Made by a program: the position numbers and the translations under genes. Below, piece by piece: positions 1 to 64,000 of a stretch of 64,000 bases of DNA. Under the pieces are notes generated by a model. That model did no database searches. It saw only the letters and a program-made list of their open reading frames with translations, and was not told the DNA's origin. The stretch comes from Bretschneidera sinensis (Eukaryota > Streptophyta > Magnoliopsida > Brassicales > Akaniaceae). How positions within the stretch are numbered: position 1 is the first letter of the stretch; each line of letters begins with the position of its first letter. Location of the stretch: assembly GCA_023935145.1 (NCBI GenBank), contig CM043698.1:143324001-143388000 (forward strand), written 5' to 3'.

Positions 1-336
1 TCCTTGGTTTCTCACCGACAAGAAAAAAGAAAGAAGACTCTGAGCCCGCAATAGGTCACATTTAAACTCAAGCCAAATTGGGTAGAACATTTAGGATAAG
101 CTAAAAGCCTTTCAGTCCATCCAGGGTTTTTATAATTTTCGAACTTATCTCCACCTTCCTTTAAACCAAAGAGAGCAAAATAAAGGAATTTATCTTCCTT
201 CCTCCTTAAAGCAATAAAATAAAGTTTTCCTCTTCTATAAGACATTTTTTATTCAAACAGTACATCAACATTTTCTTGTATAAAATCTGGCATGACAGCT
301 TAAAGCTTCAACAGATTGATTGAACAAATAGATTAC

Positions 337-3300
337 CAATGTCCTTTAATTCCAATGATGGGGTAGACTGTGGCCCAGAAATTTCTCTGTCCAAGTGAAC
401 AGACAAGTCAACTCGAGAGGGGCCCCTCAATGATGAGCATTCCATGCATTCTATGCCACCGACATCCAATATTATATGTGTATATCTTGACATAATGCAA
501 CCACAGTGAATTGCCTGGGCAGGAAAATGAAGCATTAGCGTATAGAGAATATAGAGTAGTAATCAAAAGCGAGTTCTTTGATTAAGAATAATCAGGATAT
601 AAACCCACAGGAGAGAGACACAATATGACCGCCCATAAAGGCCAGCAAGGGGAAAATGTGCAAAAGCAATAAAAAGTTCAAGATACCTTTTCGCAAGTAA
701 CACAATTTCTCCAGCCATCATCATTCAAGTGAAATATATTGCAAAATCTTCCCTCCTCATAAGCAGAGCTGAATTTGCAAAAGACTTAAGTCAATTAATC
801 ATAAACAGTGTGGGAAAGGAAGAAGATTCAATCAAATTTATAATCCCATCACAAGCTTCACCATGAAGACAATAAAGACGCACAAATGAAAATAAAACGA
901 GTACTTTGCCGGGAGTACAGACAATTCATCTAATTGGAAATATTAAAATTTATAAACTTGTTCGCATGTGATGTGGAGTCAAAATCTAATTCTGCAACTA
1001 AGATCCCTCCAGAATATAAAGTTATGCACTAAAGGTGATCACACCAAATAGGGGCAGTTATGATAGAGGAGAGAAAAGAAGAAAAAGTAAAAGAAAGAAA
1101 AAGAAACTTCGTTGGGAAAAACCTTATTGAAACAACTTATGTTTGTGAATGGTGAAATATCTAAAAGATTTGCTTATGCAAAGTCATAAAGTTACTATTC
1201 ATGTCTAACGCGTGCACGTACATGCGCGACAAAAGGATGCATGTGTACGTGCATGGGCACCCAAAACATACTCAAGCACACAATAACATGTGTTGACAAA
1301 ACAATATCTTCAATGAAACAAGCATCAGGCACAGGCAACACCTTCTGGTGTAAGGAAAAGCAATAGACATAAGGAATAGAAATCTTAAAATAGACATCAA
1401 TAGCTTGCTATGAACGATCCAGAAATATGAACTTGAATATATTGGAAATGTAATAAAATCGAATTGATGCCTGATGAAGAGACACATCTTTGAAAAAATC
1501 CTTTTCTCGCAAAGTGATGGAACAAATAAATAAAAAGAGAAAGAGGACCACTCATATCGTCAAACATCAAAAGACACGTAATATTACTTTTAGAGAAAAA
1601 CTTAGATTAGATAGTTTAACACAATTCTTTTACGCCACATTTCTTTTGATTTGTGGATTAAATAATGGAGAAAGCAGCAAGCCCATTTACCTCATATTCT
1701 ATTAGTAAAGGGCTTACAGAAATCATCAAATTCAGATTATACACACATAAGAAAGATAAAGCATTAGAATTTTGTTTACATTAAGAAACTAATAGTATAC
1801 CTATGTAATTCAATAACTTCCTTATCTAAAATGCCTCTTCAGTACATAACTTCCAAAGAAGGTCTTACCATAGTCATAAAGGAAAAATATTTTATATGTA
1901 ATAAGTAAATTATTTCTTTGTAATATGTGTTGGACTAACTAACTAATTCCATAATTTAGCACTCACACACTCACATACTTGCAATATAATGTTGGTAACA
2001 CAACATCCAAACTACATATTTAAATTTTATCAATTCAGTCTATTGCAGATTTTGCATAACAGTGATAATATTAACTGAGCAGAAGTCATAATAAGACATG
2101 AATAGCCAAACACTTGCGTGAAAATTTTACAACCAACAGTAGCCCATAAAAGCCTAGCAAACATTAGCTAAATGCATTCAGAACTTGATGAGGCATTTTG
2201 AATCGAAACAATCATTTCATTGTATTATTGGTATCTATCTATTTTCCTACCTTTTAACCCTAATGACCTGAAAAATTAATAATATTCATTATTCAATAAA
2301 AAAAAATTTATTCTCAACTAAAGGGTAATGGAAAGGGGAAGTAGAGTGAAGAGAAACGATTTTAGGCAATAATTCTTTGGAGGACAGAAACTACCAATTT
2401 AATACTACAATCCAGGTACAAAATGACAAAGTGGTTGCAGCATTATTCTAAATAGAACAAAACCGATGTTGTTTTAATATATGAAGCTAGAACAAGATCA
2501 TTTCACGACAAAACTATGAATGAAAAATGGTAACTTATTAAAAAAATGGAAAAACAGTAAGGTTAACATTTACCAACCATGCTGAAAAACAGTTTTGCTT
2601 ACCTTTTTCTTTTCCTGATTGTACGAAGAAAATAAATCATTCTTGAAAAAATAATACCATTAACACAAATTCCAGTACATAACTGTGGCTAAATTAATTT
2701 TTTTTTTTTTTGTAGTGCTACCAAGGCGGTGTCAAATTCGTTTTAAGCTATGAGGAAAAGTTTCTCTGTTCAATTGTTACTTAACTATTTAATTCGCATT
2801 AAACTTGGTCGTACTTAATGATGGGTTGAATATATGAATTTTTCAGCATAGAACATAAATTTATCTATCATATATCCTTTTCTTTTGAAAATTATAAGTC
2901 ATTTAATGTATACCTATTTCACTCCCTTGTCCACAAATTCAAAGCATGAGCAATAATGACTACAGCAGGAAGAAGTTAAAAAAGAAGGAACTACAACATA
3001 TCAATGGCCTAATAATATACTGGTTTTCTTCCTCCTTCGCTGAGAACCATTCTGCCTTCTTCCAAACAGGAAAAAAAAATGAATTGTGAATTGGATGAGT
3101 TTTCCACTGATCACATATCGCAAGATCTAATGATTTGGGAAATTGATGATACTTTTAGTTTTAGCTAATTAATTTGAGGTGGAGTCTTGAGAAAGAAAGC
3201 AAGAGTACCATCAGTAATAAGGTCTATTGCGGTAAACCTTCCACTGTTTGTTAATAAAACTGAACTACTAGGGGGACATAAAAGATGGATTCTATCTAGT

Positions 3301-6300
3301 ATAAACTTGTTCTAATCTAAGGTAGTACGCTCATGAGCTTGACCATATTTCACTGTCAAGAAATTATTGAAGACTCCCATCTTCAAGTTTGACACAAACA
3401 TAGGTACATAGTTTAGTTCTTCTAAGTCGGGAACGAGTGTCAATCATTTATTCCAAAAAAAATGTAAGGAGAGTGGGAGTTACTACTGCACCTTCCTTAA
3501 GGCCACCCTGTTAGACTTACTTTGGTTACTAGAACTACATTGCAGTGAAGAGACAACTTCAAAAATGTTCAACTCTATAGCATTCAAAAAGGTTTCTATA
3601 TGATTTCTATAAAACACGAAAACGATTTCACCACCATAAGATATTAGTGGTTGTTAGCTATTATAATTTCACTAAAAAGATATCGCAATTAGCATCAAAT
3701 TTTTCAACAAAATTTATTTGCTTCAAAAACTATAGTGTTTTTTATTTTATTTTGTTTTTTGTGTGTAATTTTATTTCATTGCACCAAACTTAACTCATTG
3801 CAACATCATTGCTTTCTGTTGCCATATTCTTAATCTACTGCAGTATCATGGTGTCATGGTGCTACTCGTCTAGCTTATGGCAGCATTTTTTTTCATGCTG
3901 CTCTTAACCTATTGCAACATCATTATTTCTTGTTGCTATATAACAAATTTCATTCGGGTTACCCTCCAAGCCAAGAATAGATTCTTGTAAGTTATTTCAC
4001 CCTTCCAAGATCAAAACCCTTTTCATGCAGTTCTCATGTTGCCCACAGCATAAGGATCGTGATTATTTATCATCATTTTTGCATCCTTTCTCAAACAAAG
4101 TACAAGGTTATTTCAAAATATTTAGTTTCACTCGATACTGGATGATTGTTTAATACCTTAGGTTACCTATGTTTTGTACTATCTTGACAGTATTCATTCT
4201 TTCGTATTTGTAGATAAACATTAACATTTAACAATGCCGGCCCAAATTTTGATAATTGTTTTAAATAGAATATACAATTTCATAGTTTCATCACAATTAA
4301 AGTACGTGTATGGACATTTTTTAACGAAATATGTACAAATAAAAGAATATGGTCCATTAAATCGTCGATAAATTTACATAATCTCACACAGATTTTTGTG
4401 CCACCTACAAAATTTTTATTAAAGGCAAGAGTTTTCCTTGTAATGTGTTTCGTCACACACCACATGAATGTGAATCCAAGATCCAAACACCCATAAAATA
4501 AGTCTTGAGCCTAATAGTGACAGCCTAAGAGAAAGAATCAATTGAAGAGGATCTCTATCACTGGACTAAAATCTTCTATTGGTAGCAAATCAGATACTTC
4601 ATCTAACCTGTAAATGCACCGATTCTTTTTTTGCCGGGGTGTTGGAGTGTTATCGTGAATTCACTCTTACCCAATTAAACAATTTATACAAGAATTACAT
4701 CATCAAAATACAAAGAGAACACGAAAACTGAAAATTATCAAGATCAACATTAAAAATAAAAGCTATGGAGCTGGCAACTAGTGCTGGTAAATGACAGCAA
4801 CAAGAATAATTTCAAGAGAGATCACTCCCCTCCTTTCCTTTATTATTCCTCTGTGCAACTTCTACAATCTATAGTTCTTCCAGTTTCAACTACCACAAAC
4901 ACTAAGCAACACCAGTATAGAAGGGACAACTACCGCAGTAGTCACATAGACTTCCTGCCCTTTACTCCTTCTGCTTCCTCTTCAACATGATTAAAAAGGA
5001 CAGTTTTTAAAAAAAAGAGAGCAACAATCATGGAACAAGAGTGAAGTGGAAAACAAGAGCCCCATACCATTACCCTATAATTAACTCCATGGGACAATTC
5101 AAACAGTGAGAAATATTACCTAATCATAGATCATAGTTATAAGCACAATTTTTTGATAATTAAAATGTATAAATAGAAAGAAACACGCATCAAGGGGGTG
5201 CAACCCATGTACAAGGCCATAGTTATAAACAAAATAGACGAAAGAAAAGGGAATAATTGTACTGATCCGTCATAAAATATATGCAATTCAGTATTGAATA
5301 AATGAATATGACATTAGATGGTTGAATAACCAAAAAGGAGATTACTGAAGAAAAATATGGCATCACTAAAATGACAAACTGGTTCAAACAGAATATAAGA
5401 TGACAACTACATACTTTACTGACAACTAATTAAGGTGCTTTGTGTTTCATTCACCTTAATGCACTTCTTACTAACAATGGATCCATTAAATCGTTACTAA
5501 TGATGTTATTCACATTTTCAAAATTTTATCAACACAGACTATTGCACATGAAGTATAACTTCCTACTCTGTTGCTATACATATATATATATATATATATA
5601 TATCCACTTATAATGCCAAACAACTAATAGAACCATAAAAAGGAAAACCAAGATAATATCTCAAGCAATTTTTTGCTTTAGATGAAACAACTGAGCCGTG
5701 CAACTCCTAAATGAGACATAATAACTGCATAAAAGTACAAATCTAAAAATTCCTATGATAAAATCCACCAATTTGAACATAGTAAAAGTACAATAAGTCT
5801 ATCCGGAAAAAAAAAAATTATGCAAAGAAAAGGTTCATAAAGACTCACAAAGGCATGACATTTATCAAGTCAATATTAAGGCATATTTATTACAAGTTTA
5901 TTCATCAGTTTCAAAATAGTAAAATAAATTATTTTAATAGACAGTAAACCAATATGTACCCATTAGAAATATTGAAACAATCCCAACAATAAAAATCTGA
6001 GATATCAAAACAAAAAAAAAAAATTGAAAACCACATAATTAAATTTCTTTGGAAAAAAATTGTAGATCATAATCATCGTTGTGAGGCTTGCCTTCTTTTA
6101 GAAGGAACCTAAGATAATTAAATTTTCGCTATCTTATTATACATAAAAAAGGAATCGCTCAGGGGTAAAAATAATCATCAAAAGCAAGATAACAGAAATG
6201 ACATCGAAAATAAAATGAGAGAGAAATAAAAACAAGTAAAATGCTTACGCGCATCGATCACAGATCATGGCATAACCTCCACTAGTCCGCCAGCCTTGTC

Positions 6301-6379
6301 TGGGTTCAATAGAGAAAGAGTGGCAATAAAAACAGGTCAAGCCCATTGGTGATGAGGAGGTTGAAGAAGAAACATCCAT
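337..6379 (-). CDS. VAL-like: VAL-like gene A, exons 1-3 (3' end outside window)
   Basis: Partial minus-strand gene: exon 1 6249-6379 (ATG at 6379), exon 2 687-768, exon 3 337-514. Exons 4-6, which encode B3, would lie left of the window. Exon 1 starts MDVSSSTSSSPMGLTCFYCH and ends at donor gc|gtaagc. Exon 2 follows acceptor cag|ctctgc and ends aaaag|gtatct. Exon 3 follows cccag|gcaatt and ends cattg|gtaatc. All splice sites are canonical and the frame is open across 130 codons. The zinc-ligand pattern is complete: C16, C19, C40, C43, C53, H57, C66, C69, H74, C75, C77, C94, C97. This matches the N-terminal Cys-rich (PHD-like) region of VAL1/HSI2-type repressors. The gene is probably functional if its left part is intact, which cannot be seen. 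Confidence 0.8.
515..686 (-). other. Intron 2 of VAL-like gene A
   Basis: Intron of 172 bp between exons 2 and 3, GT-AG. The equivalent intron in gene D (34559-34730) is also 172 bp. Only neutral-looking differences are seen. Confidence 0.7.
1208..1270. repeat. Purine/pyrimidine minisatellite, short form (unit 1)
   Basis: Alternating CG/CA/TG-rich blocks (gcgtgcacgtacatgcgcg ... gcatgtgtacgtgcatg), two blocks left. It lies in intron 1, about 440 bp from exon 2. Confidence 0.75.
5575..5603. repeat. TA microsatellite (unit 1, expanded)
   Basis: A run of TA dinucleotides, clearly longer than the equivalent runs in unit 2 (near 17565), unit 3 (near 25355) and unit 4 (near 39600). Ordinary slippage. 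Confidence 0.85.
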
Positions 6380-9300
6380 TGAATAAACTGAAAAAACTGA
6401 AAAATAGGCTTTTGTTTTTTTGTTTCTTCTCTTTTGTTCTCTTTTTCTGTGTGGTAGTGAATACTGAATACTAAGAAACCTGTGCAGATAGAGAGAAAGA
6501 AGTGGATAGTGAGAGATAGAGAGAAGTGCCTATTTGGTATAAAGTGCTTTGATAGAGACATAATGAGAAGGAAAAAGATGGTCAATTTTGCAGTCATGAC
6601 AGCAGTCAAGGTCCACTGAACCAAGAGGATAAGTTGAGAATAATTTCAAACTATTTAAGAAACATTTTTTTTTTAATTTCCAAATTAGATGATTGGATTT
6701 TTGAGAATGTGAAATCAAACGTTTAGGATTCATTTTGTAAGTGAAGTCCAAATTAGCAGAATTGCCAAATATGAAAATTCAAATTGGTTTTTTCATTAAC
6801 ATGAAGCAATATGAGTATCAAGTGTGCAATTTGCCACTTTTGTAAATAGAGTTATTAAGGTGCTAATAACGCCTCAAAAACACAACTTAGCATGACAAAT
6901 GAGATAAAAAGGTACTTTGTATTTTCTTACCAATTGGCCGCCATTCGGTTCAATGCACCAGCCAAGTTTGTCCTGTTATGACCAAAAGGGATCAAAATTG
7001 AACCCAACTTGACTGCTTCTCTGACCATGTCTGTAACTGCAGAGATGAGTAAATGAAATGCTGCAATTGTTTATACATTAACTCTTTTGCAAAAATTTTC
7101 TCTACGGTTTTACAAGGGTTTTTCTCGCTAACCAAACAGCAACAGGAAGTTTTAGAGAGCGATGTTGAAATTGCGATGGAGAGAGTTTACTGGCAACGAC
7201 ACATTTCTCAAAATATGGGCTGCTGGGACGTACATAGTCAATATGTGCTACTAGATGATTGGGCTTATTGAAGTTAGTGGGCAGATGGTCAATTTGCTCT
7301 TTTAAAATAAAAAACATAAAAATCAGATGAAGTCCTTGAATTTTAATATAAAATCAAATCAACAAACATCAAAGTTTATGGTAAAAATATTTTAAGTAAT
7401 AATTGCATACCCAATCCAAACATCCAGAAAAACTTCCTGCAAAACTCAATCATAATTTTATGAAAACTTGTGTGGTAATTACCATTTAAATTTTCAGAGT
7501 GTTCAACGCGAGTGTTTAAATATCACAACTCGAACAATTTAAAGAGAACAACCATTAATTGTTGGTTGCATAACCACGTGATAAACTCTTAATAATTACT
7601 AGAATTCACTTTGTTTAAACAAAGAAACGCAATTAAAATAACATATACTCAAAGCTAATGGAGGCATAATTTAATATGAGTAATTCCATAAACTCATATC
7701 TTAAACGAGTAATTCGGTAGCAAGTACTCACTACTTAAACATTTGAATTTTCGAAATATATTGTGTTACTTAGGCGGATTTTTTCTTCTTCATTTTTTTG
7801 AATTTTTAATGATGCAATCCGTTTATTTTAATTTCTCTTCATTATCTCCTAAAGTTTGATTGTCTAACTTTGAAATAGTTCAAAAATTATTTGATAACAT
7901 TTTTTAATTGTTAAAGATTGATTATTTTATTTGAATATAAAATATTAGATTAATTTTTTAATTGCTTTGACATACACAATAAATATTTTATCAGTTTGAG
8001 AACATTTAAAGAGCGATTTACAAAGATATTGTTATCGTATTCATAAAATACAAGAAAATAAAATCTTAGATTAAAATTTTAAGGGGTAGTGATATTGACA
8101 CTCCATGAATAGTTATCAACACTCTATTTTTTTCTTCTAAAACTTACAATAGTGCCCATAATAAAAGTTAGATACACAATTTGACTTTTAAATTATAATT
8201 ACTACCGCGTATTCTCTTTACAAGTTTCTGTTATACAAAATATTATATTAATTACATTCTTTCTTTGTTTTTTTTCTACTTTTCTCTCTTTTGTTTTCTT
8301 CTGTTTTTCCTTCAATTTTTGTTAGAGACACGAATTAAACTTTTACGTGAAAAATATTGATCCTACTGAATGCAAATGATCCAACTTCTGAAAGTCTTCT
8401 TAATATTTACTATTTTCAGCTAATAATTCTAATTAAGTTGATTAATAAGAGCCATTAATTCTATAATCTTGAGAGTTATTAATATTCAATGTATAACACA
8501 TATTCCGTCAATTGAATATCTAATATTATGAAAAAGGTGAAGAAAGAATTAAAATTAATATTACAATGTTGAAGACAAAGATTTTGATAATAGAAGAACC
8601 AAAACACTGTTGGAGCCTTTGTACACCCTAATTTTTGAGTAACGCCTTTTGTGTTCAACTATATAGGGAGTCATTTTGGTGTTAGAGACATTTTAATTTG
8701 ACATGATTTACTTTTACTCTATGAAGAACCAAGATGATGAGATAGTGAGGGTAAAGATTTAGAGATGAAGAAAGTATAATTAATAGAAATTTTTGTATTA
8801 TAAAAACTTGTAAAGAATATAAATGGCAGTAATGGTATTTCAAAGTCAAAAGAGCACATAACTTTAATTAGGAGTATTATTGTAAGTTTTAGAAACAAAA
8901 AAAATAATAATTGGAATGCCAATAATTAAAGATTTATGGAGTGTTGATATCGCTACCCATATTTTATTTGCTTACACAAACATGCTATAATATTTATTAT
9001 ATAAATTAAAGTGTGTTTCATCTTACACAAGACCCAGTCCTATTAAAGACCTTATATTTTGTCAAGGAATTTCGTATTTAAATTTAAATATGATGTATTA
9101 TTAAGATAGTTTTATCAATGTCTTATTTAATATAATCATTATAGTATTAAAAGTTCATATGCATTCAATACTCAATGATTTAAAACTCCATTTAATTTTG
9201 ATGGTACGCACAAAATGTAGTTCCCTTTTGAGATTGAACAAGTTTCCCAACCAGTATTAGGTGTAGTACAAGATGCCACTGTGACTCAAATAATTTAAAA

Positions 9301-10435
9301 ATTCAGTTTAAAAATTCTTATCCTCCATCAAACTTAAATAATTCCCTCCAACCTGCAACGAGAGAGTTTTTTGTAATTTAATATTTCTATTATTAGAGAG
9401 AAAGGAAGCAGAGAAGGATGGAGATAGAAAATTTTCTAGGGTTGTTTTTTAATAAGAAAAAAAGTGTAGAACAAAGGACTATGTACAAGATAGGCTTCAA
9501 TAAAATCTATACGGTGAATCTCATTTACAAAATAGTTTCCTCCAGCCAAAAAAAGAGAGTATGTTAAGCCAACAATCTTTAAGAAAATAAATCGATCTTT
9601 CCACCCTGTCAAAAAGCTCCCCTATTACTTTATAAGCTAACCACAAATGGAAGATGGGATCAAGGTGATGTGCTTCTTCTTTTCACTTGAAGATTGAAAA
9701 ATTGTTCCATGCCCAAATCTCCTGAACCACAGACTCACTACTCAATGCAATAAAGCCCCAAAACCCGATAAATTTAAAACAATGAAAAACAGCCCAATAA
9801 GCATTGAATTTGTCATTGATTTGACTACTTCCATACCACTCCTAGAAATGAGTCATATAGGCAATATGTAGGGCTGTAAATCGGCTCAGGCCGCCCGAGC
9901 TCGACTATTAGCTCACTCAAACTCGCTAATAACGCTTCATGAGCCAATCTCGAGCAGAATTTTAGCTCATTAAATTCTTGTGTCGAGCATGAGAATAGTG
10001 TGGCTTGCCTCAATAACACTCAAGCATTTTCAGCTCGTTACTTTCCAAGCTGAGCAATCAATACAATTCGTCTCAGCTCGATTTAAATTAAAATATGAAT
10101 ATATTTATATACTGTTATACATATATAAAACTCCCATACAAGTTTTACAATATAGGAAATAAAAGTCAACTTTACTTCAAGGGAAAAACTTACATTTAAA
10201 ATAAAAAAGGGGAAAACTTACATAAAAAAGTACTTCAAGCAAAAAACTACCATATATATAGTCTTATATAGTTACTAGGGCTTTTATGTTCAACTCTTCT
10301 TTTTGTCATTGAGCTCAATATCATATCTCATAACAATATCATACCTATACCATTTCAGGTCCAAGGTACAACTGCACCCCCAAAATAAACTCTAAACAAT
10401 GGCTTAAACCTTCTAAGAGTAGTTACTTTATCATG
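6380..10435. other. Spacer between gene A exon 1 and gene B exon 6
   Basis: The first 170 bases are the gene A leader and candidate promoter. An exon-like minus-strand stretch lies at about 6938-7046 (after ctgcag, reading MVREAVKLGSILIPFGHN, before a gtaaga donor). The rest is AT-rich. It includes the degenerate GGGCTGTAAA element at 9869-10090 and probable 3' untranslated sequence of gene B just below 10436. No gene is recognised. Confidence 0.6.
9869..10090. repeat. Degenerate GGGCTGTAAA...GAGCTCG element (unit 1)
   Basis: Starts tagggctgtaaatcggctcagg and continues with many GAGCTCG/AGCTCA motifs, a wording common in old dispersed plant repeats. I see no matching inverted end. It is present at the same place in units 3, 4 and 5, so it predates the array. 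Class unknown; a hAT-like non-autonomous element is one possibility. Confidence 0.4.
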
Positions 10436-12724
10436 CTAGAGCTTCTGATTCGATCCACCAGCTTGGGCCTTTTGTAGTCCTATGACCAGTTTCCCCTCTG
10501 GTTCCTTCGGAGAAAAGTTAACTGCAAAGTCCACCACTCATGGTCACTATCTCTTCATACATCAAATAGTAACTCACAAGTGCATTAAGTAAACACTTTA
10601 AAAACTTTCAAAATGTTTTTCAGGTAAGATACAGAAAACTATTAAAGATTAATCAAGGTGCATGAAAGAAGGAACTAAAATGATATTGCTATTATTTAGA
10701 AAATTTAAATATGTAATTTCATTATACAGGATCAATAGAAATTGAAATGTGTTTATATATGCAAGATTGAGCTCAAAATAATTACTTGATTGTGACTAAA
10801 AGAGTGAGATGTGATGGCAGAAATAAGAGTGATAAATCAAAATTAGAAAACATAATTATCAAGATTGCCTGAGCATTACTTAAGCTAGAATTACATGAAT
10901 TACCTTTGTCACCGGGTTTACCATCCATCAAAGTCATGTACCCTCTGAGCCCTTCTAAGTTGTAAGTCTTGCTGCTATTGAGAGGCCGAGAGTAGTAGTT
11001 AAACTGCCACTCAAGGCCTGTTGTATCCTGGACTCTAATAGGAATTCGTTGCCCTGCAGAAATTTTAGGGAAGAAAGCCTGCATTATTTAGTATCTATTA
11101 CCACAAAAGACTTTAAATCCAAGGTCTACTAGACACTATAACAAGACCATATGTCATTTCTCATGAATCAATTAGTTTAATGACCATGCAGAGCCATTAA
11201 ACAAAAGGGAAACTGGTATAGGGGAGTAGCCTTTCTACTTTCCTCCTCCCTAAGCATGGTTTTAGTTATTACAATCATCATCATCTTAACATTCACACTT
11301 ACCTCCGCATGCTTTTTCGGAATCAACATGCGACCCGTCCTGGGATCAGAATCAGTTGCAGTCAAGATTTTATTGAATAAAGAGACAAGTTGATGCTCTC
11401 TGGCTTCTATAGGCTTCTGACCATTTGGTTCAGAGGTTGATGATGTTGGATCGGCCCCACAGTTTCCTGCAACTGAACATCAACATAGAGTTAGTAGTCA
11501 ATGAAAAACAATGATCATCCAGTATAACAGCTTAAAATTGCAAGCTATAAATATACTTTTTGAAAAAAAAAGACCGCACTTCAATGGAATCATAACTGGT
11601 GAGGTAGAACCACAAGCATAGTATCAAGAGAGAGGGAGAAGAATTAAAAAGAAACCAAGAAACAAATGCGGTGCAAATAACAGTGGAATCACAAAAAACC
11701 TCAAAAATAGGTATTTATTCGTCAACCAATGCACTAATGTCCAAAACATAATAGAGTGCTCTTACATATGCACAAAAACCTAACTATAAAAGGAAACAAA
11801 ATATTAAGTCCTCAAACAAATCAAAATCCCTCAAATAGAATCCCTAATTTTAAATCTGTTTCTGTAATATTCCGTTTAAAATCCTTGATTAGTACTCCAT
11901 AGTAATCACCCTTCTAGATAGAAGAGTCGGAAAGAAACACACAACTCCATGTTACTTCTTTGGTTTGTCACCGACATGAAAAAAGAAAGAAGACTCTGAG
12001 CCCGCAATAGGTCACATTTAATTTCAAGACAAATTAGGTAGAACATTTAGCATAAGCTAAAAGCCTTTCAGTCCATCCAGTGTTTTTATAATTTTCAAAC
12101 CTATCTCCACCTTTCTTTAAAGCAAAGAGAGCAAAATAAAGGAATTTATCTTCCTTCCTCCTTAAAGCAATAAAATAAAGTTTTCCTCTTCTATAAGACA
12201 TTTTTTATTCAAACAGTACATCAACATTTTCTTGTATAAAATCTGGCATGACAGCTTAATGCTTCAACAGATTGATTGAACAAATAGATTACCAATGTCC
12301 TTTAATTCAAATGATGGGGTAGACTGTGGCCCAGAAATTTCTCTGTCCGAGTAAACAGACAAGTCAACTCGAGAGGGGCCCCTCAATGATGAGCATTCCA
12401 TGCATTCTATGCCACCGACATCCAATATTATATGTGTATATCTTGACATAATGCAACCACAGTGAATTGCCTGGGCAGGAAAATGAAGCATTAGCGTATA
12501 GAGAATATAGAGTAGTAATCAAAAGCGAGTTCTTTGATTAAGAATGATCAGGATATAAATCCACAGGAGAAAGACACAATATGACCGCCCATAAAGGCCA
12601 GCAAGGGGAAAATGTGCAAAAGCATTAAAAAGTTCAAGATATCTTTTCGAAAGTAACACAATTTCTCCAGCCATCATCATTCAAGTGAAAGATACTGCAA
12701 AATCTTCCCTCCTCATAAGCAGAG

Positions 12725-18217: not shown

Positions 18218-18348
18218 GCGCATCGATCACACATCATGGCATAACCTCCACTAGTCCACCAGCCTTGTCTGTGTTCAATAGAGAAACAGTGGCAATAAAA
18301 ACAGGTCGAGCCCATTGGTGATGAGGAGGTTGAAGAAGAAGCATCCAT

Positions 18349-28349: not shown

Positions 28350-28354
28350 AGAAC
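28350..28354. repeat. Left target-site duplication of solo LTR
   Basis: AGAAC directly before TGTAACGACC; partner GGAAC at 30684-30688. Confidence 0.75.
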
Positions 28355-51517: not shown

Positions 51518-51648
51518 GCGCATCGATCACAGATCATGGCATAACCTCCACTAGTCCGCCAGACTTGTCTGTGTTCAATTTAGAAACAGTGGCAATAAAA
51601 ACAGGTCGAGCCCATTGGTGATGAGGAGGTTGAAGAAGAAGCATCCAT

Positions 51649-54600: not shown

Positions 54601-55310
54601 ATCCACTGACTCACTGCTCAGGCAATAAAGCCCGAAAACTCGATAAATTTAAAACAATGGAAAACAGCCCGAAAATCCATGAATTTGTCATTGATTTGAC
54701 TTCTTCCGTACCACTCCTGGAAATGAGTCATATAGCCAATATGTACGGCAGTAAATCAGCTCAGGCCGCCTGAGCTCGACTTTTAGCTCATTCAAACTCG
54801 CTCATAACGCTTCATGAGCCAATATCGAGCAGAATTTTAGCTCATAAAATTATTGTGCCGAGCTTGAGAGTAGTGTGGCTTGCCTTAATAACGCTCGAGC
54901 ATTTTAAGCTCGTTACTTTCCAGGCCGAGCATTCAATACAATTCGTCTAAGCTCAATTTAAATTAAAATATGAATATATTTATATACTGTTATACATATA
55001 TAAAACTTCCCATACAAGTTTTACAATATAGGAAATAAAAGTCAACTTTACTTCAAGGGAAAAAATTACATTTAAAATAAAAAAGGGAAAAACTTACATA
55101 AAAAAGTACTTTAAGCAAAAAACTACCATATATATAGTCTTATATAGTTACTAGGGCTTTTATGTTCAACTCTTCTTATTGTCATTGAGCTCAATATCAT
55201 ATCTCATAACAATATCATACCTATACCATTCAGGTCCAAGGCACAACTGCACCCCCAAAATAAACTCTGAACAATGGCTGAAACCTTCTAAGAGTAGATA
55301 CTTTATCACA
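51649..55310. other. Spacer between gene E exon 1 and gene F exon 6
   Basis: Begins with the gene E leader and candidate promoter. The 388 bp segment is missing (junction 52111-52114), as in unit 2. The GGGCTGTAAA element at about 54743-54965 is more diverged here. No gene is recognised. Confidence 0.6.
54743..54965. repeat. Degenerate GGGCTGTAAA element (unit 5)
   Basis: Same element with more changes (tacggcagtaaatcagctcagg). Confidence 0.4.
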
Positions 55311-57582
55311 CTAGAGCTTCTGATTCGATCCAGCTGCTTGGGCCTTTTGTAGTCCTATGACCAGTTTCCCCTCTGGTTCCTTCCGATAAAAAGTAACTGC
55401 AAAGTCCACCATTCATGGTCACCATCTCGTCACACATCAAATAGTAACTCACAAGTGCATTAAGTAAACACTTTAAAAACTTTCAAAATGTTTTCCAGGA
55501 AAGATATAGAAAACTATTAAAGATTAATCAAGGTGCATGAAAGAAAGAACTAGTGATATAGCTATCATTTAGCAAATTTAAATATGTAATTTTCATTACA
55601 CAGGATCACCAGAAAGTGAAATGTGTTTATATATGAAAAATTAAGCTCAAAATAACTACTTGATTGTGACTAAAAGAGTAAGATGTAATGGAAGAAATAG
55701 GAGTGATAATTCAAATTAGAAAACATAATTATCAAGATTGCCTAAGCATTACTGAAGCTAGAATTACATGAATTACCATTGTCACCGGGTTTACGATCCA
55801 TCAAAGTCATGTAGCCTCTGAGCCCTTCTAAGTTGTAAGTCTTGCTGCTATTGTGAGGCCGAGAGTAGTTGTTAAATTGCCACTCAAGGCCTGTTGTATC
55901 CTGGACTCCAATTGGAATTCGTTACCCCACAGAAATTTTAGGGAAGAAAGCCTGCATTATTTAGTATCTATTACCACAAAAGACTTTAAATCCAAGGTCT
56001 ACTAGACACTATAACAAGACCATATGTCATTTCTCATTAATCAGTTATGTTAATGACCATGCAGAGCCATTAAACAAAAGAGGAACTGGTAGAAGAGAGT
56101 AGCCTTTCTCCTTTCCTCCTCCCTAATCATGGTTTTAGTTAATACAATCATCATCATCTTAACATACAGACTTATCTCCGCATGCTTTTTTGGAATCAAC
56201 ATGCGACCCGTCCGGGGATCAGAATCACTTGCAGTCAAGATTTTGTTGAATAAAGAGACAAGTTGATGCTCTCTGGTTTCTATAGGCTTCTGACCATTTG
56301 GTTCAGAGGTTGATGATGTTGGATCGGCCCCACAGTTTCCTGCAACTGAACACCAACATAGAGTTAGTAGTCAATGAAAAACAATGATCATCCAGTATGA
56401 CAGCTTAAAATTGCGTGCTATAAATATACTTTTTGAAAGAAAAAAAGACCGCACTTCAATGGAATCATAACTGGTGATGTAGAACCACAAGCATAGTATC
56501 AGCAGAGAGGAAAGAAACCAAGAAACAAATACGGTGCAAATCACAGTGGAATCACAAAACCTCAAAAATAGGTATTTATTCGTCAACCAATGCACTAATG
56601 TCCAAAACATAATAGGGTGCTCTTATATATGCACAAAAATCTAACTATAAAAGGAAACAAAATATTAAGTCCTCAAACAAAACAAAATCCCTCAAATAGA
56701 ATCCCTAATTTTAAACCAATTTCTGTAATATTCCGTTTAAAATCCTTGATCAGTACTCCATAGTAATCACCCTTCTAGATAGAAGAGTCGGAAAGAAACA
56801 CACAATTCCATGTTACTTCCTTGGTTTGTCACGGACAAGAAAAAAGAAAGAAGACTCTGAGCTCGCAATAGGTCACATTTAAATTCAAGACAAGTTAGGT
56901 AGAACATTTATTATAAGCTAAAAGCCTTTCACTCCATCAAGGGTTTTTATAATTTTCAAACTTATCTCCACCTTCCTTTAAACCATAGAGAGCAAAATGA
57001 AGGAATTTATCTTCCTTTCTCCTTAAAGCAATAAAATAAAGATTTCCTCTTCTATAAGACCTTTTTTATTCAAACAGTACATCAACATTTTCTTGTATAA
57101 AATCTGGCATGACAGGTTAAAGCTTCAACAGATTGATTGAACAAATAGATTACCAATGTCCTTTAAATCCAATGATGGGGTAGACCGTTGCCCAGTAATT
57201 TCTCTGTCCGAGTTAACAGAAGAGTCAACTCGAGACGGGCCCCTCAATGATGAGCATTCCATGCCTTTTATGCCACCGACATCCAATATTATGTGTATAT
57301 CTTGACATAATGCATCCACAGTGAGTTGCCTGGGCAGGAAAATGACGTATTAGCGTATAGAGAATATAGAGTAGTAATCAAAAGCGAGTTCTTTGATTAA
57401 GAATAATCAGGATTTAAATCCACAGGAGAGAGACACAATATGACCACCCATAAAGGCCAGCAAGGCGAAAATGTGCAAGAGCAATAAGAAGTTCAATATA
57501 CCTTTTCGCAAGTAACAAAATTCTCCAGCCATTATCATTTAAGTGAAAGATATTGCAAAATCTTCCCTCCTCATAAGCAAAG
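55311..57582 (-). pseudogene. VAL-like: VAL-like gene F, exons 2-6, multiply disrupted
   Basis: Exons visible (minus): 2 57502-57582, 3 57154-57329, 4 56176-56339, 5 55777-55951, 6 55311-55396. Exon 1 lies beyond the window. The exon 2 acceptor reads cac instead of cag (57583-57584). Exon 2 has lost one base (near 57518-57523) and exon 3 two bases (near 57287-57295), so the frame shifts and is then restored. The exon 4 donor is AT instead of GT (56174-56175). Exon 5 has TAA for the Gln of SAGQR (55922-55924). Exon 6 is open and reads VTFYRKEPEGK, the form closest to the family consensus. Clearly dead as a B3 protein. Confidence 0.83.
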
Positions 57583-60500
57583 GTGAATTTGCAAAAGACT
57601 TAAGTCAATTAATCATAAACAGTGTGGGAAAGGAAGAAGATTCAATCAAATTTATAATCCCATCACAAGCTTTACCATGAAGACAATCAAGACGCACAAG
57701 TGAAAATAAAAGGAGTACTTTGCCGGGGGTACCGACAATTCATCTAATAGGCAATATTAAAATTTATAAACTTGTTCGCATGTGATTTTGAGTCAAAATC
57801 TAATTCTTCAATAAGATCCCTGCTGAATATAAAGTTATGCACTAAAGGTGATCGCACCAAATAAGGGAAGTTATGATACAGGAGAGAAAAGAAGAAAAAG
57901 TAAAAGAAAGACAGAGAAACTTCGTAGGGAAAAACCTTATTGAAACAACCTATGTTTGTGAATGGTGAAATATGTCAAAGATTTGCTTATGCAAAGTCAT
58001 AAAGTTATTATTCATGTCAAACGCGTGCATGTACATGCGCACACAAAAATATGCATGTGCGCATGTACGTGCACACAAAAATATGCATGTGCGCATACAT
58101 GCGCACACAAAAACATGCATGTTCACGTATATGCACACACAAAAGGATGCACGTGTACGTACTTGCGCACACAATAGCACGTGTTGACACAACAATATTT
58201 TCAAGGAAAAAAGCATCAGGCACAGGCAACACCTTCCGGTATAAGGGAAAGCAATAGACATAAGGAAAAGAAATCTTAGAATAGACATCAGTTGCTTGCT
58301 ATCAACGATCCAGAAATATGAACTTGAATATATTGATAATGTAATAAAATCGAATTGATGCCTGATGAAGAGACACATCTTTGAAAATATACTATTCTCG
58401 CAAAGTGATGGAACAAATGAATAAAAAGAGAAAGAGGACCACTCATACTGTAAAACATCAAAAGACACCTAATACTACTTTTAGAGAAAAACTTAGATTA
58501 GATAGTTTAACACAATTCTTTTATGCCACATTTCATTTGATTTGTGGATTAAATAATGGAGAGAGCAGCAAGCCCATTTACCTGATATTCTATTATTATT
58601 CAGATTATACACACATAAGAAAGATAATGCATGAGAATTTTGTTTACATTAAGAAACTAATAGTATACCTATGTAATTTAATAACTTCCTTAGCTAAAAT
58701 GCCTCTGCAGTACATAACTTCCAAAGAAGGTCTTACCATAGTCATAAAAGGACAAATATTTTATATGTAATAAGTAAATTATTTCTTTGTAATACGTGTT
58801 GGACTAACTAACTAGTTTCATAATTTAGCACTCACACACTCACATACTTGCAACATAATGTTGGTAACACAACATCCAAACTACATATTTAAATTTTATC
58901 AATTCAATCTATTGCAGACTTTGCATAACAGTGATAATATTAACTGAGCAGAAGTCATACATGTCTACTTGTATAATAAGACATGAATAGCCAAACAAAT
59001 GCATGAAAAATTTGCAACCAGCAGTAGCCCATAACAGCCCATTAGCTAAATGCATTCAGAACTTGATGTGGAATTTTGAATCGAAACAATCATTTCATTG
59101 TATTATTGGTATCTATCTATTTTCCTACCTTTTAACCATAATGACCTGAAAAGTTAATAATATTCACTATTCAGTAAAAAATTGTTTATACTCAACAAAA
59201 GGGTAATGGAAAGGGGAAGTAGAGTGAAGAGAAACGGTTTTAGGCAAGAATTCTTTGGAGGAGAGATAAACTACTGATTTAATACTACAATCCAGGTACA
59301 AAACAGCAAAGTGGTTGCAGCATTATTCTAACTAGAACAAAAACGATGTTGTTTTAATATGTGAAGCTAGAACTAGATCATTTCACGACAGAACTATAAA
59401 TGCAAAATGGTAACTTAATAAAAAAATGGAAAAACGGTAAGGTTAACATTTACCAACCATGCTGAAAAACAGTTTTGCTTACCTTTTTCTTTTCCTGATA
59501 GTACGGAGAAAATAAATCATTCTTAAAAAAATAAATACCATTAACACAAATTCCAGTACATAACTATGGCTAAATTCAATTTTTTTTTTGGTAGTGCTAC
59601 CCAGGCGGTGTCAAATTCATTTTAAGCTAAGAGGAAAAGTTTCTTTGTTCGATTGTTAATTAACTAGTTAATTCGCATTAAACTTGGTTGTACTTAATGA
59701 TGGGTTGAATATATGAATTTTTCAGCATAGAACATAAATTTGTCTATCATATATCCTTTTCATGTGAAAATTATAAATCATTTAATATATACCTATTTCA
59801 CTCTCGTCCACAAATTCAAATCATGAGCAATAATGATTACAGCAGGAAGAAGTTAAAAAAGAAGGAACTACAACATATCAATGGCCTAATAATATACTGG
59901 TTTTCTTCCTCCTTCGCTGAGAACCATTCTGCCTTCTTCCAAACAGGAAAAAAATTTGAATTGTGAATTGGATGAGTTTTCCACTGATCACATATCACAA
60001 GATCTAATGATTTGGGAAATTGATGATACTTTTAGTTTTAGCTAATTAATTTGAGGTGGAGTCTTGAGAAAGAAAGCAAGAGTACCATCAGTAATAAGGT
60101 CTATTGCGGTAAACCTTCCACTGTTTGTTAATAAAACTGAACGACTAGAGGGACATAAAAGATGGATTCTATCAAGTATAAACTTGTTCTAATCTAAGGT
60201 AGTACGCTCATGAGCTTGACCATATTTCACTTTCAAGAAATTATTGAAGACTCCCATCTTCAGGTTTGACACAAACATAGGTACATAGTTTAGTTCTTCC
60301 AAAGTCGTGAATGAGTGTCAATCATTTATTCCTTAAAAATGTAAGGAGAGTGGAAGTTACTACTGCACTTTCCTTAAGGCGAGCCTGTTAGACTTACTTT
60401 GGTTACTAGACTTACATTGCAGTGAAGAGATAACTTCAAAAATGTACAACTCGATAGCATTCAAAAAGGTTTCTATATGATTTCTATAAAACACGAAAAC

Positions 60501-61195
60501 GAGTTCACCACCATAAGATAGTAGTTGTTGTTAGCTATTATAATTTCACAAAAAAGATATCACAATTAGCATCAAATTTTGCAACAAAATTTATTTGCTG
60601 CAAAAACTATAGTTTTTTTTAGTGTAATTTTATTTCATTGCAACAAACTTAACTCATTGCAATATCATTGCTTTCTGTTGCCATATTCTTAATCTACTGC
60701 AGCATCATGGTGTCATGCTGCTACATGTCTAACTGATGGCAACATCTTTTTTCATGCTGCTCTTAACCTATTGCAACATCATTATTTCTTGTTGCTATAT
60801 AACAAATTTCATGCGGGTTACCCTCCAAGCCAAGAACAGATTCTTTTAAGTTATTTAACCCTTCCAAGATCAAAACCCTTTCATGCAGTTCTCATATTGC
60901 CCACTGCATAAGGATCATGATTCCTTATCATCATTTTTACATGCTTTCTCAAACAAAGTACAAGGTTCTTTCAAAATATTTAGTTTCACTTAATACTGGA
61001 TGATTGTTTAATACTTTAGGTTACCTACGTTTTGTACTTTCTTGACAGTATTCATTCTTTCATATTTGTAGATAAACATTAACATTTAACAATGCTGGCC
61101 CAAATTTTGATAATTGTTTTAAATAGAATCTACAATTTCATAGTTTCATCACAATTAAAGTACGTGTATGGACATTTTTTTGTTATTTCTTAATG
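57583..61195 (-). other. Intron 1 of gene F, visible proximal part
   Basis: Type 3-like intron 1 sequence with the longest minisatellite in the window (58021-58180). The predicted acceptor at its 3' end is mutated. No nested gene is recognised. A plus-strand open stretch at 58381-58770 is antisense to the intron and has no recognisable domain. Confidence 0.6.
58021..58180. repeat. Purine/pyrimidine minisatellite, longest form (unit 6)
   Basis: About six blocks, with one extra gcatgtacgtgcacacaaaaat block compared with unit 3. Confidence 0.78.
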
Positions 61196-61851
61196 AACTA
61201 TGTGCAAATAAAAGAATATGGTCCATTAAATCCTAGATAAATTTACATAATCTCACACAGGTTTTTGTGCCACCTACAAAAATTTTATTAAAGGCAAGAG
61301 TTTTCCTTGTAATGTGTTTCTTCACATACCACATGAATGTGAATCCAAGATCTAAACACCCATAAAATCAGTCTTGAGCCTAATAGTGACAGCCTAAGAG
61401 AAGGAATCAATTCAAGAGGACCTCTATCACTGAACTAAAATATTCTATTGGTAGCAAATCAGATACTTCATCTAACTTGTAAATGCACTGATTCTTTTTT
61501 TGCTGGGGTGTTGGAGTGTTATCATGAATTCACTCTTACCCAATTAAACAATTTATACAAGAATCACATCATCAAAATACAAGGAGGACACGAAAACTGA
61601 AAATTATCAACATCAACATTAAAAATAAAAGCAACAAAGCTAGCAACTAGTGCTGGCAAATGACAGCAACAAGAACAATTTCAAGAGAGATCACTCCCCT
61701 CTTTTCCGTTATTATTCCTCTGTACAACTTCTACAATCTATAGTTCTTCCAGTTTCAACTACCACAAACACTAAGTAACACAAGTATAGAAGGGACAACT
61801 ACAGCAGTAGTCACATAGACTTCTTGCCCTTTACTCCTTCTGCTTCCTCTT
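61196..61851. repeat. Left arm of 655 bp duplication around Copia fragment
   Basis: Equivalent to unit-1 positions of about 4326-4982. Between about 61320 and 61620 it matches unit 4 (38470-38740) base for base where I compared it, including acttgtaaatgcactg and caaggaggacacg, both different from units 1, 2 and 5. After about 61625 it diverges again (aaagcaacaaagctagc). Confidence 0.82.
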
Positions 61852-62066
61852 TATTGAGACAGAGCTTATTTCATGAGTTTTATGTTATTAGTTTTACTGA
61901 TATAGAAACCACTTTTTTAGTTTGTTATGCCAGCTGGTACAGTTGTATATTAGCTGGAGTCCAGGTGGCTTGTTTCTATTGGTTTAGACTTATTGCATAT
62001 AAGAGCCAACTTGTAACTTTTTTGTTCATTCAATGAGATTTGTTTCTTTTCTTCTCTTTTGTAATA

Positions 62067-62077
62067 TGGTATCAGAG
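62067..62077 (+). other. Copia primer-binding site (initiator tRNA-Met type)
   Basis: TGGTATCAGAG, complementary to the 3' end of plant initiator tRNA-Met, as in most plant Copia elements. It marks the end of the LTR remnant just before it. Confidence 0.85.
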
Positions 62078-62177
62078 AAATGTTTTTGCTCAGCTGCGAA
62101 TTGCAGAAATTGCGATTTCGTTTATTTTCATTGATCTTCGTTCTTCGTTTTTCTTCGTTTGTTCTTGTTGATCTTCA

Positions 62178-62880
62178 ATGGCTTGTGGAGGAGGAGCTCG
62201 GGGAGGCAACAATGGCGGTAATCGGAATAACAAAAATTCCTTTTCAGTCTCGGATTCTGTTGGTCGCGTCCATGAAGATTCAAACAGCCCTTTCCATCTC
62301 AGTAATGGTGATCATCCAGGTCTAAGCTTGGTTTCGAGTCCTTTGACAGGTAGGAACTGTAACTCTTGGCATTGTTCTATGGTAATAGCTCTTATTGCTA
62401 AGAACAAAATTGGATTTGTTGATGGATCAATTGCTAAACCAGAAATTGGTGATAATAAGCACAATTTTTGGTCTCGTTGTAATAACATGGTTATGTTATG
62501 GATCTTGAATGCTGTTTGTAAAGACATAGTAGATAGTATAATGTGTGTTCATGATGCTGAAAGTATGTGATTGATTTACATGATCGGTTTAATCAAAGCA
62601 ATGGTCCTAGGATTTTTCAATTAAAGCAAGAAAGACATGCTCTCACACAGGGTTCAAATGATGTTAGTACCTAGTTCACCAAGCTTAAAATTTTTTGGGA
62701 TGAATTACGTGATTTTAGACCTGCACCAGCGTGTCATTGTGGAGGAATGAAGAGTTTTACAGAATATCAACATCAAGACTATGTGTTACAGTTCCTTATG
62801 GGTTTAAATGAGTCTTTTATTCAGATCAGGGCTCAAATCCTTATGAGTGATCCACTACCTCCGATTAACAAAGTTTTTTC
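62178..62880 (+). pseudogene. gag: Copia gag fragment, frameshifted
   Basis: ATG at 62178 opens MACGGGARGGNNGG, a low-complexity start, then NSPFHLSNGDHPGLSLVSSP, LTGRNCNSWHCSMVIAL, NKIGFVDGSI and WSRCNNMVMLWILNAV. These are the typical N-terminal motifs of plant Copia gag (Retrotran_gag / UBN2 type). The frame ends at a TGA at 62568-62570, where a few codons are lost. Similarity resumes in another frame: DLHDRFNQSNGPRIFQLKQE, an in-frame TAG at about 62672, then FWDELRDFRPAPACHCGG and YVLQFLMGLNESFIQIRAQI, stopping at the element's end. Non-functional. Confidence 0.88.
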
Positions 62881-63535
62881 CGAAATATGTGCAAATAAAA
62901 GAATATGGTCCATTAAATCCTAGATGAATTTACGTAATCTCACACAGGTTTTTGTGCCACCTACAAAATTTTTATTAAAGGCAAGAGTTTTCCTTGTAAT
63001 GTGTTTCGTCACACACCACATGAATGTGAATCCAAGATCCAAACACCCATAAAATAAGTCTTGAGCCTAATAGTGACAGCCTAAGAGAAAGAATCAATTG
63101 AAGAGGATCTCTATCACTGGACTAAAATCTTCTGTTGGTAGCAAATCAGATACTTCATCTAACGTGTAAATGCACCGATTCTTTTTTTGCCGAGGTGTTG
63201 GAGTGTTATCATGAATTCACTCTTACCCAATTAAACAATTTATACAAGAATTACATCATCAAAATACAAACGAAAACTGAAAATTATCAACATCAACATT
63301 AAAAATAAAAGCTATGGAGCTGGGAACTAGTGCTGGTAAATGACAGCAACAAGAACAATTTCAAGAGAGATCACTCCCCTACTTTCCTTTATTATTCCTC
63401 TGTGCAACTTCTACAATCTATAGTTCTTCCAGTTTCAACTACCACAAACAGTAAGCAACACAAGTATAGAAGGGACAACTACAGCAGTAGTCACATAGAC
63501 TTCCTGCCCTTTACTCCTTCTGCTTCCTCTTCAAC
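62881..63535. repeat. Right arm of 655 bp duplication around Copia fragment
   Basis: Second copy of the same segment, starting cgaaatatgtgc and passing without a break into the rest of the unit. It resembles unit 1 (ataaaataagtcttgagcc; gaagaggatctctatcactgg) rather than the left arm. The arms therefore come from different repeat types. Confidence 0.82.
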
Positions 63536-64000
63536 ATGATTAAAAAGGACAGTTTTGAAAAAAAAAGAGAGCAACAATCATGGAACAAGAGTGAAGTGGA
63601 AAACAAGAGCCCCGTGCCATTACCCTATAATTAACTCCATGGGACAATTCAAACAGTGAGAAATATTACCTAATCATAGATTCATAGTTATAAGCACAAT
63701 TTTTTGATAATTAAAATGTATAAATAGAAAGAAACACGCATCAAGGGGGTGCAACCCATGTACAAGGCCATAGTTATAAACACAATAGACGAAAGAAAAG
63801 GGAATAGTTGTACTGATCCGTCATAAAATATATGCAATTCAATATTGAATAAATAAATATGACATTAGATGTTTGAATAACCAAAAAGGAGATTACTGAA
63901 GAAAAATATGGCATCACTAAAATGACAAACTGGTTCAAACAGAATATAAGATGACAACGACATACTTTACTGACAACTAATTAAGGTGCTTTGTGTTTCA

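What the first reader, a model, noticed from the sequence alone, without database searches (positions are those of the whole stretch)
1..64000. Higher-order tandem array: three-unit block duplicated, each unit carrying a VAL-like gene
Six units of about 12 kb sit head to tail. Diagnostic differences pair 1 with 4, 2 with 5 and 3 with 6. Examples are the contracted minisatellite in 1/4, the 388 bp deletion in 2/5, and the lost exon 2 acceptor and ccgttgcccagtaatttc wording in 3/6. That is a higher-order repeat of the kind known from centromeric satellites, but built from a chromatin-repressor-like gene. A first triplication was followed by duplication of the whole 34-36 kb block.
Basis: seen in the sequence. 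Interest (0 to 1): 0.85.

Follow-up and report, generated by a model that had tools for sequence, protein, structure and literature searches.

The report
Tandem array of short VAL genes
A plant chromosome stretch carries six head-to-tail copies of a short, mostly broken gene of the VAL repressor family; a block of about two and a bit copies was probably duplicated by one mismatched exchange, which is a neat but ordinary way for gene arrays to grow.

Summary
Six ~12 kb units lie head to tail, plus a seventh fragment. Pairings 1/4 (97.6% identity) and 2/5 (97.8%) are confirmed along the units; other pairs are 94-96%. The 3/6 pairing holds only in the first ~0.9-1.1 kb; beyond, unit 3 groups with 1/4 and is ~4.6% from unit 6. 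So three whole units were not duplicated. Best reading: one unequal crossover between units three apart, leaving unit 3 a hybrid joined in intron 1 near the minisatellite.

The gene is on the minus strand. Gene 4 is an intact six-exon, 273-aa frame with a VAL1-type zinc finger and a B3 domain, stopping right after B3. Similar short VALs occur in many eudicots. Genes 2, 3, 5 and 6 carry lesions; exons diverge about as fast as the rest. 'Centromere-like higher-order repeat' overstates two block copies. A misjoined-haplotype artefact is not excluded. A copia fragment resembles elm sequences.

The parts
1..11956 (.). unit 1 (pairs with unit 4)
   Evidence: 97.59% over 11874 columns to unit 4
11957..20713 (.). 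unit 2 (pairs with unit 5); its right end, with the B3 exons of gene 3, is deleted
   Evidence: 97.84% over 8026 columns to unit 5; deletion junction at 20703-20713
20703..34045 (.). unit 3, hybrid: left ~0.8-1.1 kb pairs with unit 6, the rest groups with units 1/4
21499..21981 (.). inferred exchange breakpoint in unit 3 (unit position 885 to 1626), spanning the minisatellite and a 324-bp gap private to unit 3
34046..45956 (.). unit 4
45957..56817 (.). unit 5 (~0.7-kb absence with 5-bp microhomology at 50812-50816)
56818..61851 (.). unit 6, left part only
61852..62873 (+). truncated copia element (LTR-like part, primer-site-like TGGTATCAGAG by my reading, gag)
   Evidence: read from sequence; Retrotran_gag_3, E 5.7e-15 for 62172-62567
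62874..64000 (.). fragment of a seventh unit (unit positions 4318-5449), nearest to units 1 and 4, weakly resolved
   Evidence: 97.5% to unit 1, 97.4% to unit 4, 95.9% to unit 2, 96.1% to unit 3 (827 columns), 96.9% to unit 5 (488 columns), 94.5% to unit 6 (658 columns)
40258..40388 (-). gene 4 exon 1 (ATG; zinc-finger start)
34731..34812 (-). gene 4 exon 2
34381..34558 (-). gene 4 exon 3
   Evidence: zf_VAL1_N on the ORF 34355-34606
33391..33560 (-). gene 4 exon 4 (B3 start)
32992..33166 (-). gene 4 exon 5 (B3)
32524..32609 (-). gene 4 exon 6 (B3 end and stop codon)
337..6379 (-). gene 1, exons 1-3 (6249-6379, 687-768, 337-514), no lesion seen; B3 half lies left of the window
10436..18348 (-). 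gene 2 (exons 18218-18348, 12643-12724, 12293-12470, 11303-11472, 10904-11078, 10436-10521): exon-2 donor GT to AT, conserved Cys69 to Phe; frame otherwise open
20951..26138 (-). gene 3 (26008-26138, 21301-21382, 20951-21128): exon-2 acceptor lost, stop in exon 3, no B3 exons
44437..51648 (-). gene 5 (51518-51648, 46645-46726, 46295-46472, 45303-45472, 44904-45078, 44437-44522): stop in exon 1, Cys69 to Phe
55311..57582 (-). gene 6 remains (57502-57582, 57154-57329, 56176-56345, 55777-55951, 55311-55396): acceptor lost, two frameshifts, stop in B3, B3 donor lost; exon 1 not in the window
6846..7233 (.). 388-bp stretch ~0.5-0.85 kb upstream of the gene's ATG, absent in units 2 and 5; 4-bp ATAG at both edges
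28355..30683 (.). probable solo LTR (2329 bp, TG...CA ends, flanks AGAAC/GGAAC) in unit 3 only
   Evidence: read from sequence; no family search

Best explanation
A tandem array of a short VAL-type gene (VAL1-type zinc finger plus B3, frame ending after B3), probably in a rosid plant. Older duplications gave units that now differ by about 4-6%. Later, at ~2.3% divergence, one unequal crossover between homologous units three places apart copied a block and left a hybrid unit. The product order is u0, u1, u2, [left of type 3 | right of u0], u1', u2', u3'. The exchange point lies in intron 1, at unit position ~0.9-1.3 kb. Shown: the pairings, the sharp switch in unit 3, the gene models and the lesions. 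Inferred: that the switch is a crossover rather than conversion, and that the unseen unit left of the window matches the right part of unit 3. Function: the array as it stands has no visible shared function. Exons diverge at about the rate of the rest, and two of the three unit types already carried damage (lost acceptor; lost conserved cysteine) before the block was copied. An intact copy such as gene 4 would, if expressed, most likely bind RY-type DNA through B3 without a CW histone reader; that is inference from the family.
For: Even 1/4 (2.41%) and 2/5 (2.15%) divergence along the units, variance/mean 1.19 and 1.34 in 250-column bins, fits one event. 3/6 shows 1.8% up to position 885, then 7.2%. 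The best change point for the two conflicting splits lies between 1137 and 1251, with 0 of 2000 label shuffles as strong. Trees: 3+6 bootstrap 100 at positions 89-1137 (100 at 89-700, 99 at 701-1137); 2+5+6 against 1+3+4 bootstrap 100 at 1623-4045. Block pairing is contiguous from window 1 to ~21.5 kb against 34.0 to ~57.7 kb. Gene 4: open 822-bp reading frame, consistent splice sites and phases, zf_VAL1_N E 2.4e-19 and B3 E 1.3e-8, PDB VAL1 and VAL2 matches. Exon against non-exon divergence, e.g. u1-u4 22/822 (2.7%) and 264/11052 (2.4%), u1-u3 3.9% and 3.75%.
Against: The unit left of the window, which the model needs, cannot be seen. The breakpoint is blurred: three 3+6 sites lie between 886 and 1137 although 3-6 divergence there is already 7.2%, and three more (3078, 3079, 3434) lie far to the right. 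Support for 2+5+6 is 100 at 1623-2500 but only 56 at 2501-3300 and 68 at 3301-4045. 3-6 divergence in the paired stretch is uneven (variance/mean 3.33 over 4 bins at 89-1137). Five 4+6 sites at 4620-4718 show that conversion-like patches occur. There is no outgroup, so indel direction is inferred. No reads were available, so haplotype misjoining remains open. Exon counts are small: u3-u4 has 31 nonsynonymous against 4 synonymous differences, which could also be read as adaptive change.
Confidence: 0.7

Rival explanations
1. Assembly artefact: the two haplotypes of a heterozygous plant were placed one after the other, joined inside unit 3, so that 1/4, 2/5 and 3/6-left are alleles.
For: Pairs differ by an even ~2.2-2.4%, a value an outcrossing tree's haplotypes could reach (recalled, not tested). 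A switch inside a repeat unit is also what a misjoin would give.
Against: No N in the window. The putative alleles would differ by a ~2.9-kb absence (unit 2), a ~0.7-kb absence (unit 5) and several gene lesions. Even then, at least three diverged tandem units remain.
Confidence: 0.17
2. Whole three-unit block duplication, followed by gene conversion that overwrote the right part of unit 3 or of unit 6.
For: Conversion-like patches exist (4+6 at 4620-4718).
Against: Needs a tract covering at least unit positions 1.25-4.98 kb, where unit 6 can be seen, and, if it lies in unit 3, perhaps 10 kb. One crossover explains it without a second event.
Confidence: 0.1
3. A functional dosage array: several copies make short VAL proteins under diversifying selection.
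For: Gene 4 is fully open. dN exceeds dS in u3-u4 (0.0505 against 0.0225).
Against: Genes 2, 3, 5 and 6 carry splice, stop or frameshift lesions. Exons diverge about as fast as non-exonic sequence. Synonymous counts are tiny.
Confidence: 0.03

Closest known systems
Short VAL-like proteins, several annotated 'B3 domain-containing protein Os07g0563300-like' (e.g. Sesamum P0005, Solanum P0018; also Coffea P0001, Rehmannia P0003, Pistacia P0047)
   Same: zf_VAL1_N then B3, about 255-275 aa in many asterid members; Coffea P0001 ends right after B3, and its B3 has the same one-residue-longer loop (TDxD) as the window protein.
   Different: The window protein is mostly 38-45% identical to those covered over most of its length and sits on a long branch (1.16 changes per column) beside rosid members. 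Pistacia P0047 is longer (393 aa). No tandem array was looked for in those genomes.
Arabidopsis VAL1/HSI2, VAL2, VAL3
   Same: PHD-like zinc finger and B3, matched to solved VAL1 and VAL2 structures.
   Different: HSI2/VAL1 and HSL1 also have a CW domain and an EAR motif (PMC4232687, passages). Gene 4 stops after B3, and no CW was found in the ORFs tested.
Rhox cluster, three-gene duplication unit
   Same: A multi-gene block as the unit of tandem duplication; named in PMC6060901 (abstract and passages) as a case beyond the simple neighbour model.
   Different: Different genes; not compared by sequence.
NBPF 3-mer higher-order repeats (Olduvai triplets)
   Same: A three-monomer tandem repeat within gene sequence (PMC9584774: outline with its short abstract; PMC10475015: search listing only).
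   Different: ~1.6-kb monomers and about 50 tandem 3-mers in human (search listing), against ~12-kb units and two block copies here.
Gene cluster growth by unequal crossing over inside genes (Gehring's model)
   Same: Predicts hybrid genes at the exchange point (PMC6060901, abstract and passages); unit 3 / gene 3 looks like such a hybrid.
   Different: The model treats adjacent genes; here the mispairing spans three units.
Maize alpha-zein tandem clusters
   Same: Tandem copies in a plant; in the z1B cluster only two copies keep an intact frame (PMC3121756, passages).
   Different: Seed storage genes; the passages seen argue for a mechanism other than unequal crossing over in those clusters.

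Membership tests
VAL (HSI2/VAL) repressors | N-terminal VAL1-type zinc finger | tested here: met
   PF25813 E 2.4e-19, 69.4 bits against cut-off 27
VAL (HSI2/VAL) repressors | B3 DNA-binding domain of the VAL type | tested here: met
   PF02362 E 1.3e-8, 35.1 bits against cut-off 30.1; best PDB match VAL1 E 5.3e-23
VAL (HSI2/VAL) repressors | zf-CW domain (called essential to plant VAL proteins in PMC6599366, passages) | tested here: not met
   In-frame stop right after B3 in gene 4; no CW in gene 4, nor in 12 of the 17 minus-strand ORFs of 33 aa or more at 42495-44404, the stretch downstream of B3 as seen in unit 4 (ORF list). Shorter exons and the other five ORFs were not tested
VAL (HSI2/VAL) repressors | EAR repression motif | not tested
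   Protein ends 'GSNQKL'; no motif search was run
Short VAL-like (zinc finger + B3 only) proteins | Both domains in ~255-275 aa, ending after B3 | tested here: met
   Gene 4 has both in 273 aa. 64 of 81 hits carry both Pfam domains; that search takes only proteins of about 150-478 aa and scored a capped 7987 candidates, and some hits may be fragments of longer proteins
Higher-order repeat (HOR) | Period of n monomers repeated, with higher identity between periods than between monomers within one | tested here: inconclusive
   Met for units 1/4 and 2/5, not for unit 3/6 beyond ~1 kb; two periods, a third only weakly hinted at by unit 7
Higher-order repeat (HOR) | Centromeric location or function | not testable with these tools
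   Chromosomal position unknown; the genome search did not complete
Unequal-crossover gene cluster | Hybrid unit at the exchange point with a sharp change of affinity | tested here: met
Unequal-crossover gene cluster | Right part of the hybrid matches the unit preceding the first block | not testable with these tools
   That unit lies left of the window

The most novel reading that the evidence does not exclude
The array is a still-growing higher-order repeat that spreads an intact short VAL (B3 without CW, a possible competitor of full VALs at RY sites). It may also control itself through RY-bearing minisatellites in its own intron 1, much as VAL1 acts on two RY elements in FLC intron 1 (PMC5485006, passages). 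Supports: unit 7 is nearest to units 1 and 4 in identity, as a third period would predict, though only 3 informative sites join it to them and bootstraps are 65-69; 21 of the window's 53 CATGCA motifs sit in the six intron-1 minisatellites, 707 bp in all. Against: base composition explains most of those motifs, and four of six genes carry lesions.
Probability: 0.05. Interest if true: 0.7.

Novelty: new member of a known kind. Interest (0 to 1): 0.33.

Why it matters
It is a readable example of how a plant gene array grows: the likely exchange point, the hybrid unit and the relative age of the block can be read from one window, and gene lesions can be placed before or after the block was copied. 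It also shows a short form of the VAL repressor family amplified and decaying, probably in a rosid. It does not overturn anything known about VAL function or about higher-order repeats.

Tried and rejected
Rejected: 3/6 as a whole-unit pair. The 388-bp difference as a transposon is unlikely: 4-bp ATAG at both edges and, by eye, no matching inverted ends; of two ORF pieces inside it given to Pfam plus one overlapping it, none passed a cut-off. A deletion in the 2/5 ancestor is more likely, but without an outgroup this stays open. RY-motif clustering in the minisatellites: the excess over the whole window is clear (53 against 32 expected, 0 of 100 shuffles). Against dinucleotide shuffles of each minisatellite it is weak: unit 3 has 8 against 3.3, 22 of 1000 shuffles as high; the other five had 67, 595, 228, 516 and 175 of 1000. 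A loose CW-like DNA pattern of my own gave 0 matches with 0.6 expected, so it is uninformative. Rfam and tRNA scans of the window gave nothing. A plasmid comparison of 34046-37000 gave no match, as expected for plant DNA.

Literature: ten searches, seven of them touching VAL or B3 genes. I saw no paper on a tandem VAL array or on a CW-less VAL class in their listings; one search was narrowly worded and found nothing, and only the listed rows were seen. Limits: the genome collections here hold prokaryotes, viruses and plasmids, so no plant relative's DNA, no outgroup unit and no left flank could be fetched. The tree used 32 of the 81 hits, chosen by me for spread of taxa, and 3 window proteins. 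The tool flagged four long end branches (Selaginella, Craigia, Liquidambar, Drosera), and the window clade's stem is as long (1.16), so placements are unsure.

Full report
What was checked. The window is 64,000 bases without N, 32% GC. Self-comparison shows head-to-tail repeats across all of it; the longest match, 1507-16799 against 35519-50816, is 97.0% identical. Taking window position 1 as the start, unit starts are 1, 11957, ~20614 (where the first 88 bases are deleted, so the visible start is 20703), 34046, 45957 and 56818. The units are not equal in length: unit 2 lacks its right end, unit 3 carries a 2.3-kb insert, and unit 6 breaks off at 61851 into a copia fragment that is followed by unit positions 4318-5449 again.

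Pairing. I aligned the six units and the unit-7 fragment, leaving out the unit-3 insert. Identity is 97.59% for 1-4 (11,874 columns) and 97.84% for 2-5 (8,026 columns); the other 13 pairs among units 1-6 are 94.2-96.2%. Among units 1-5, sites with a minority pair split 133 for 2+5 and 47 for 1+4, against 17 for the eight other pairs together. Identical gaps shared by two or three of units 1-5 point the same way: 8 for 2+5, 5 for 1+3+4 and 4 for 1+4, against 8 for all other groupings.

Unit 3 is a hybrid. Units 3 and 6 differ by 14/794 (1.8%) at unit positions 89-885, near the age of the other pairs (1-4 2.1%, 2-5 3.3% there), and by 18/251 (7.2%) at 886-1137, where unit 3 is nearer to unit 1 (12/252, 4.8%). 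Sites for 3+6 number 27 at or left of position 1250 and 3 to the right; sites for 1+3+4 against 2+5+6 number 0 and 17. Trees give 3+6 bootstrap 100 at 89-1137, and 2+5+6 against 1+3+4 bootstrap 100 at 1623-4045; in thirds of that stretch the support is 100, 56 and 68. The exact point is uncertain: divergence jumps at ~885, while the last 3+6 site before the switch is at 1137. Right there unit 3 has a private 324-bp gap beside the 32-bp minisatellite.

Interpretation of the array. A single unequal crossover between units three places apart gives this picture: units 1, 2 and the left end of 3 are copied, and the unit at the junction takes its left from one parent unit and its right from another. 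Even divergence of 1-4 and 2-5 along the unit (variance/mean 1.19 and 1.34) fits one event. The unit-7 fragment is nearest to units 1 and 4 (97.5% and 97.4%), as a third period would predict, but support is weak: among units 1, 2, 3, 4 and 7 three sites join 1+4+7 against 2+3, one joins 4+7 and one joins 3+4+7, and tree supports are 65-69. Conversion-like patches also occur: five sites at 4620-4718 join 4 and 6. A theory paper on gene clusters describes such hybrids and names the three-gene Rhox block as outside its simple model (PMC6060901, abstract and passages).

The gene. It runs on the minus strand, so exons 1-3 lie in one unit and the B3 exons in the unit to the left. Gene 4 has six exons with matching splice phases and an open 822-bp frame: 273 aa. 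Pfam finds zf_VAL1_N (E 2.4e-19) and B3 (E 1.3e-8); solved VAL1 and VAL2 domains match. The frame stops just after B3. No CW turned up in gene 4 or in 12 of 17 minus-strand ORFs downstream of B3 in unit 4. A profile search found 81 relatives, 64 of them with both domains, mostly asterids with some rosids; its length filter (about 150-478 aa) hides full-length VALs, and only the 7987 best candidates were scored. In a tree of 32 of these and 3 window proteins, the window proteins join the rosids Pistacia and Xanthoceras (90/78), then Craigia (94/94), on a stem of 1.16 changes per column. With so long a stem the placement is a lead only.

State of the copies. Gene 1: exons 1-3 clean, B3 unseen. 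Gene 2: exon-2 donor lost and Cys69 to Phe. Gene 3: exon-2 acceptor lost, stop in exon 3, B3 exons deleted. Gene 4: intact. Gene 5: stop in exon 1 and Cys69 to Phe. Gene 6: acceptor lost, frameshifts, stop in B3 and B3 donor lost. Cys69 to Phe in 2/5 and the acceptor loss in 3/6 are shared and so probably predate the block copy; the lesions seen in one copy only are probably later. Exons diverge like the rest in the four units that hold all exons (1, 3, 4, 5; units 2 and 6 were left out because they lack some): u1-u3 32/822 against 378/10086, u1-u4 22/822 against 264/11052, u1-u5 38/822 against 535/9932, u3-u4 37/822 against 382/10088, u3-u5 48/822 against 498/9013, u4-u5 41/822 against 525/9900. 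This is what decay looks like, although synonymous counts are too small to exclude selection on one copy. [quoted passage not shown] I did not check that the residue is the same.

Which plant. The copia gag piece is 76-77% identical to two Ulmus minor proteins, and 10 of its 15 hits are from Ulmus minor; 3 are unnamed and the other two are from Vitis and Abeliophyllum. With the rosid lead from the gene tree, an elm or a close relative is likely, not proven; no Ulmus protein was among the 81 VAL hits.

Verdict. Real tandem array, well-supported block duplication, short VAL genes mostly dead. Not a three-whole-unit higher-order repeat, and no evidence for a centromeric role. The main doubt is haplotype misjoining, which only reads can settle.

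Noticed in passing
61852-62873: Truncated copia element (LTR-like part, primer-site-like TGGTATCAGAG and gag) joins two different units, so a deletion probably fused unit 6 and a seventh unit; its gag is closest to Ulmus minor proteins.
   Followed up: partly
28355-30683: 2329-bp probable solo LTR in unit 3 only, with TG...CA ends and near-identical 5-base flanks AGAAC/GGAAC.
   Followed up: partly
1206-1277, 13162-13292, 21820-21950, 35250-35322, 47164-47300, 58019-58181: Intron-1 minisatellites hold 21 of the window's 53 CATGCA (RY) motifs, the type of site that VAL B3 domains bind; composition explains most of it.
   Followed up: partly
unit positions 4620-4718 (units 4 and 6): Five sites join units 4 and 6 against the other four units, a small conversion-like patch.
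   Followed up: no
8084-8265 and 8768-8958: Inverted pair of ~190 bp (73% alike) between the genes, also seen in other units.
   Followed up: no
P0001-P0081: A zinc finger plus B3 short VAL class appears in many eudicots under varied names (Os07g0563300-like, VAL2-like, VAL3-like); the listings of my paper searches showed no paper naming it as a group.
   Followed up: partly
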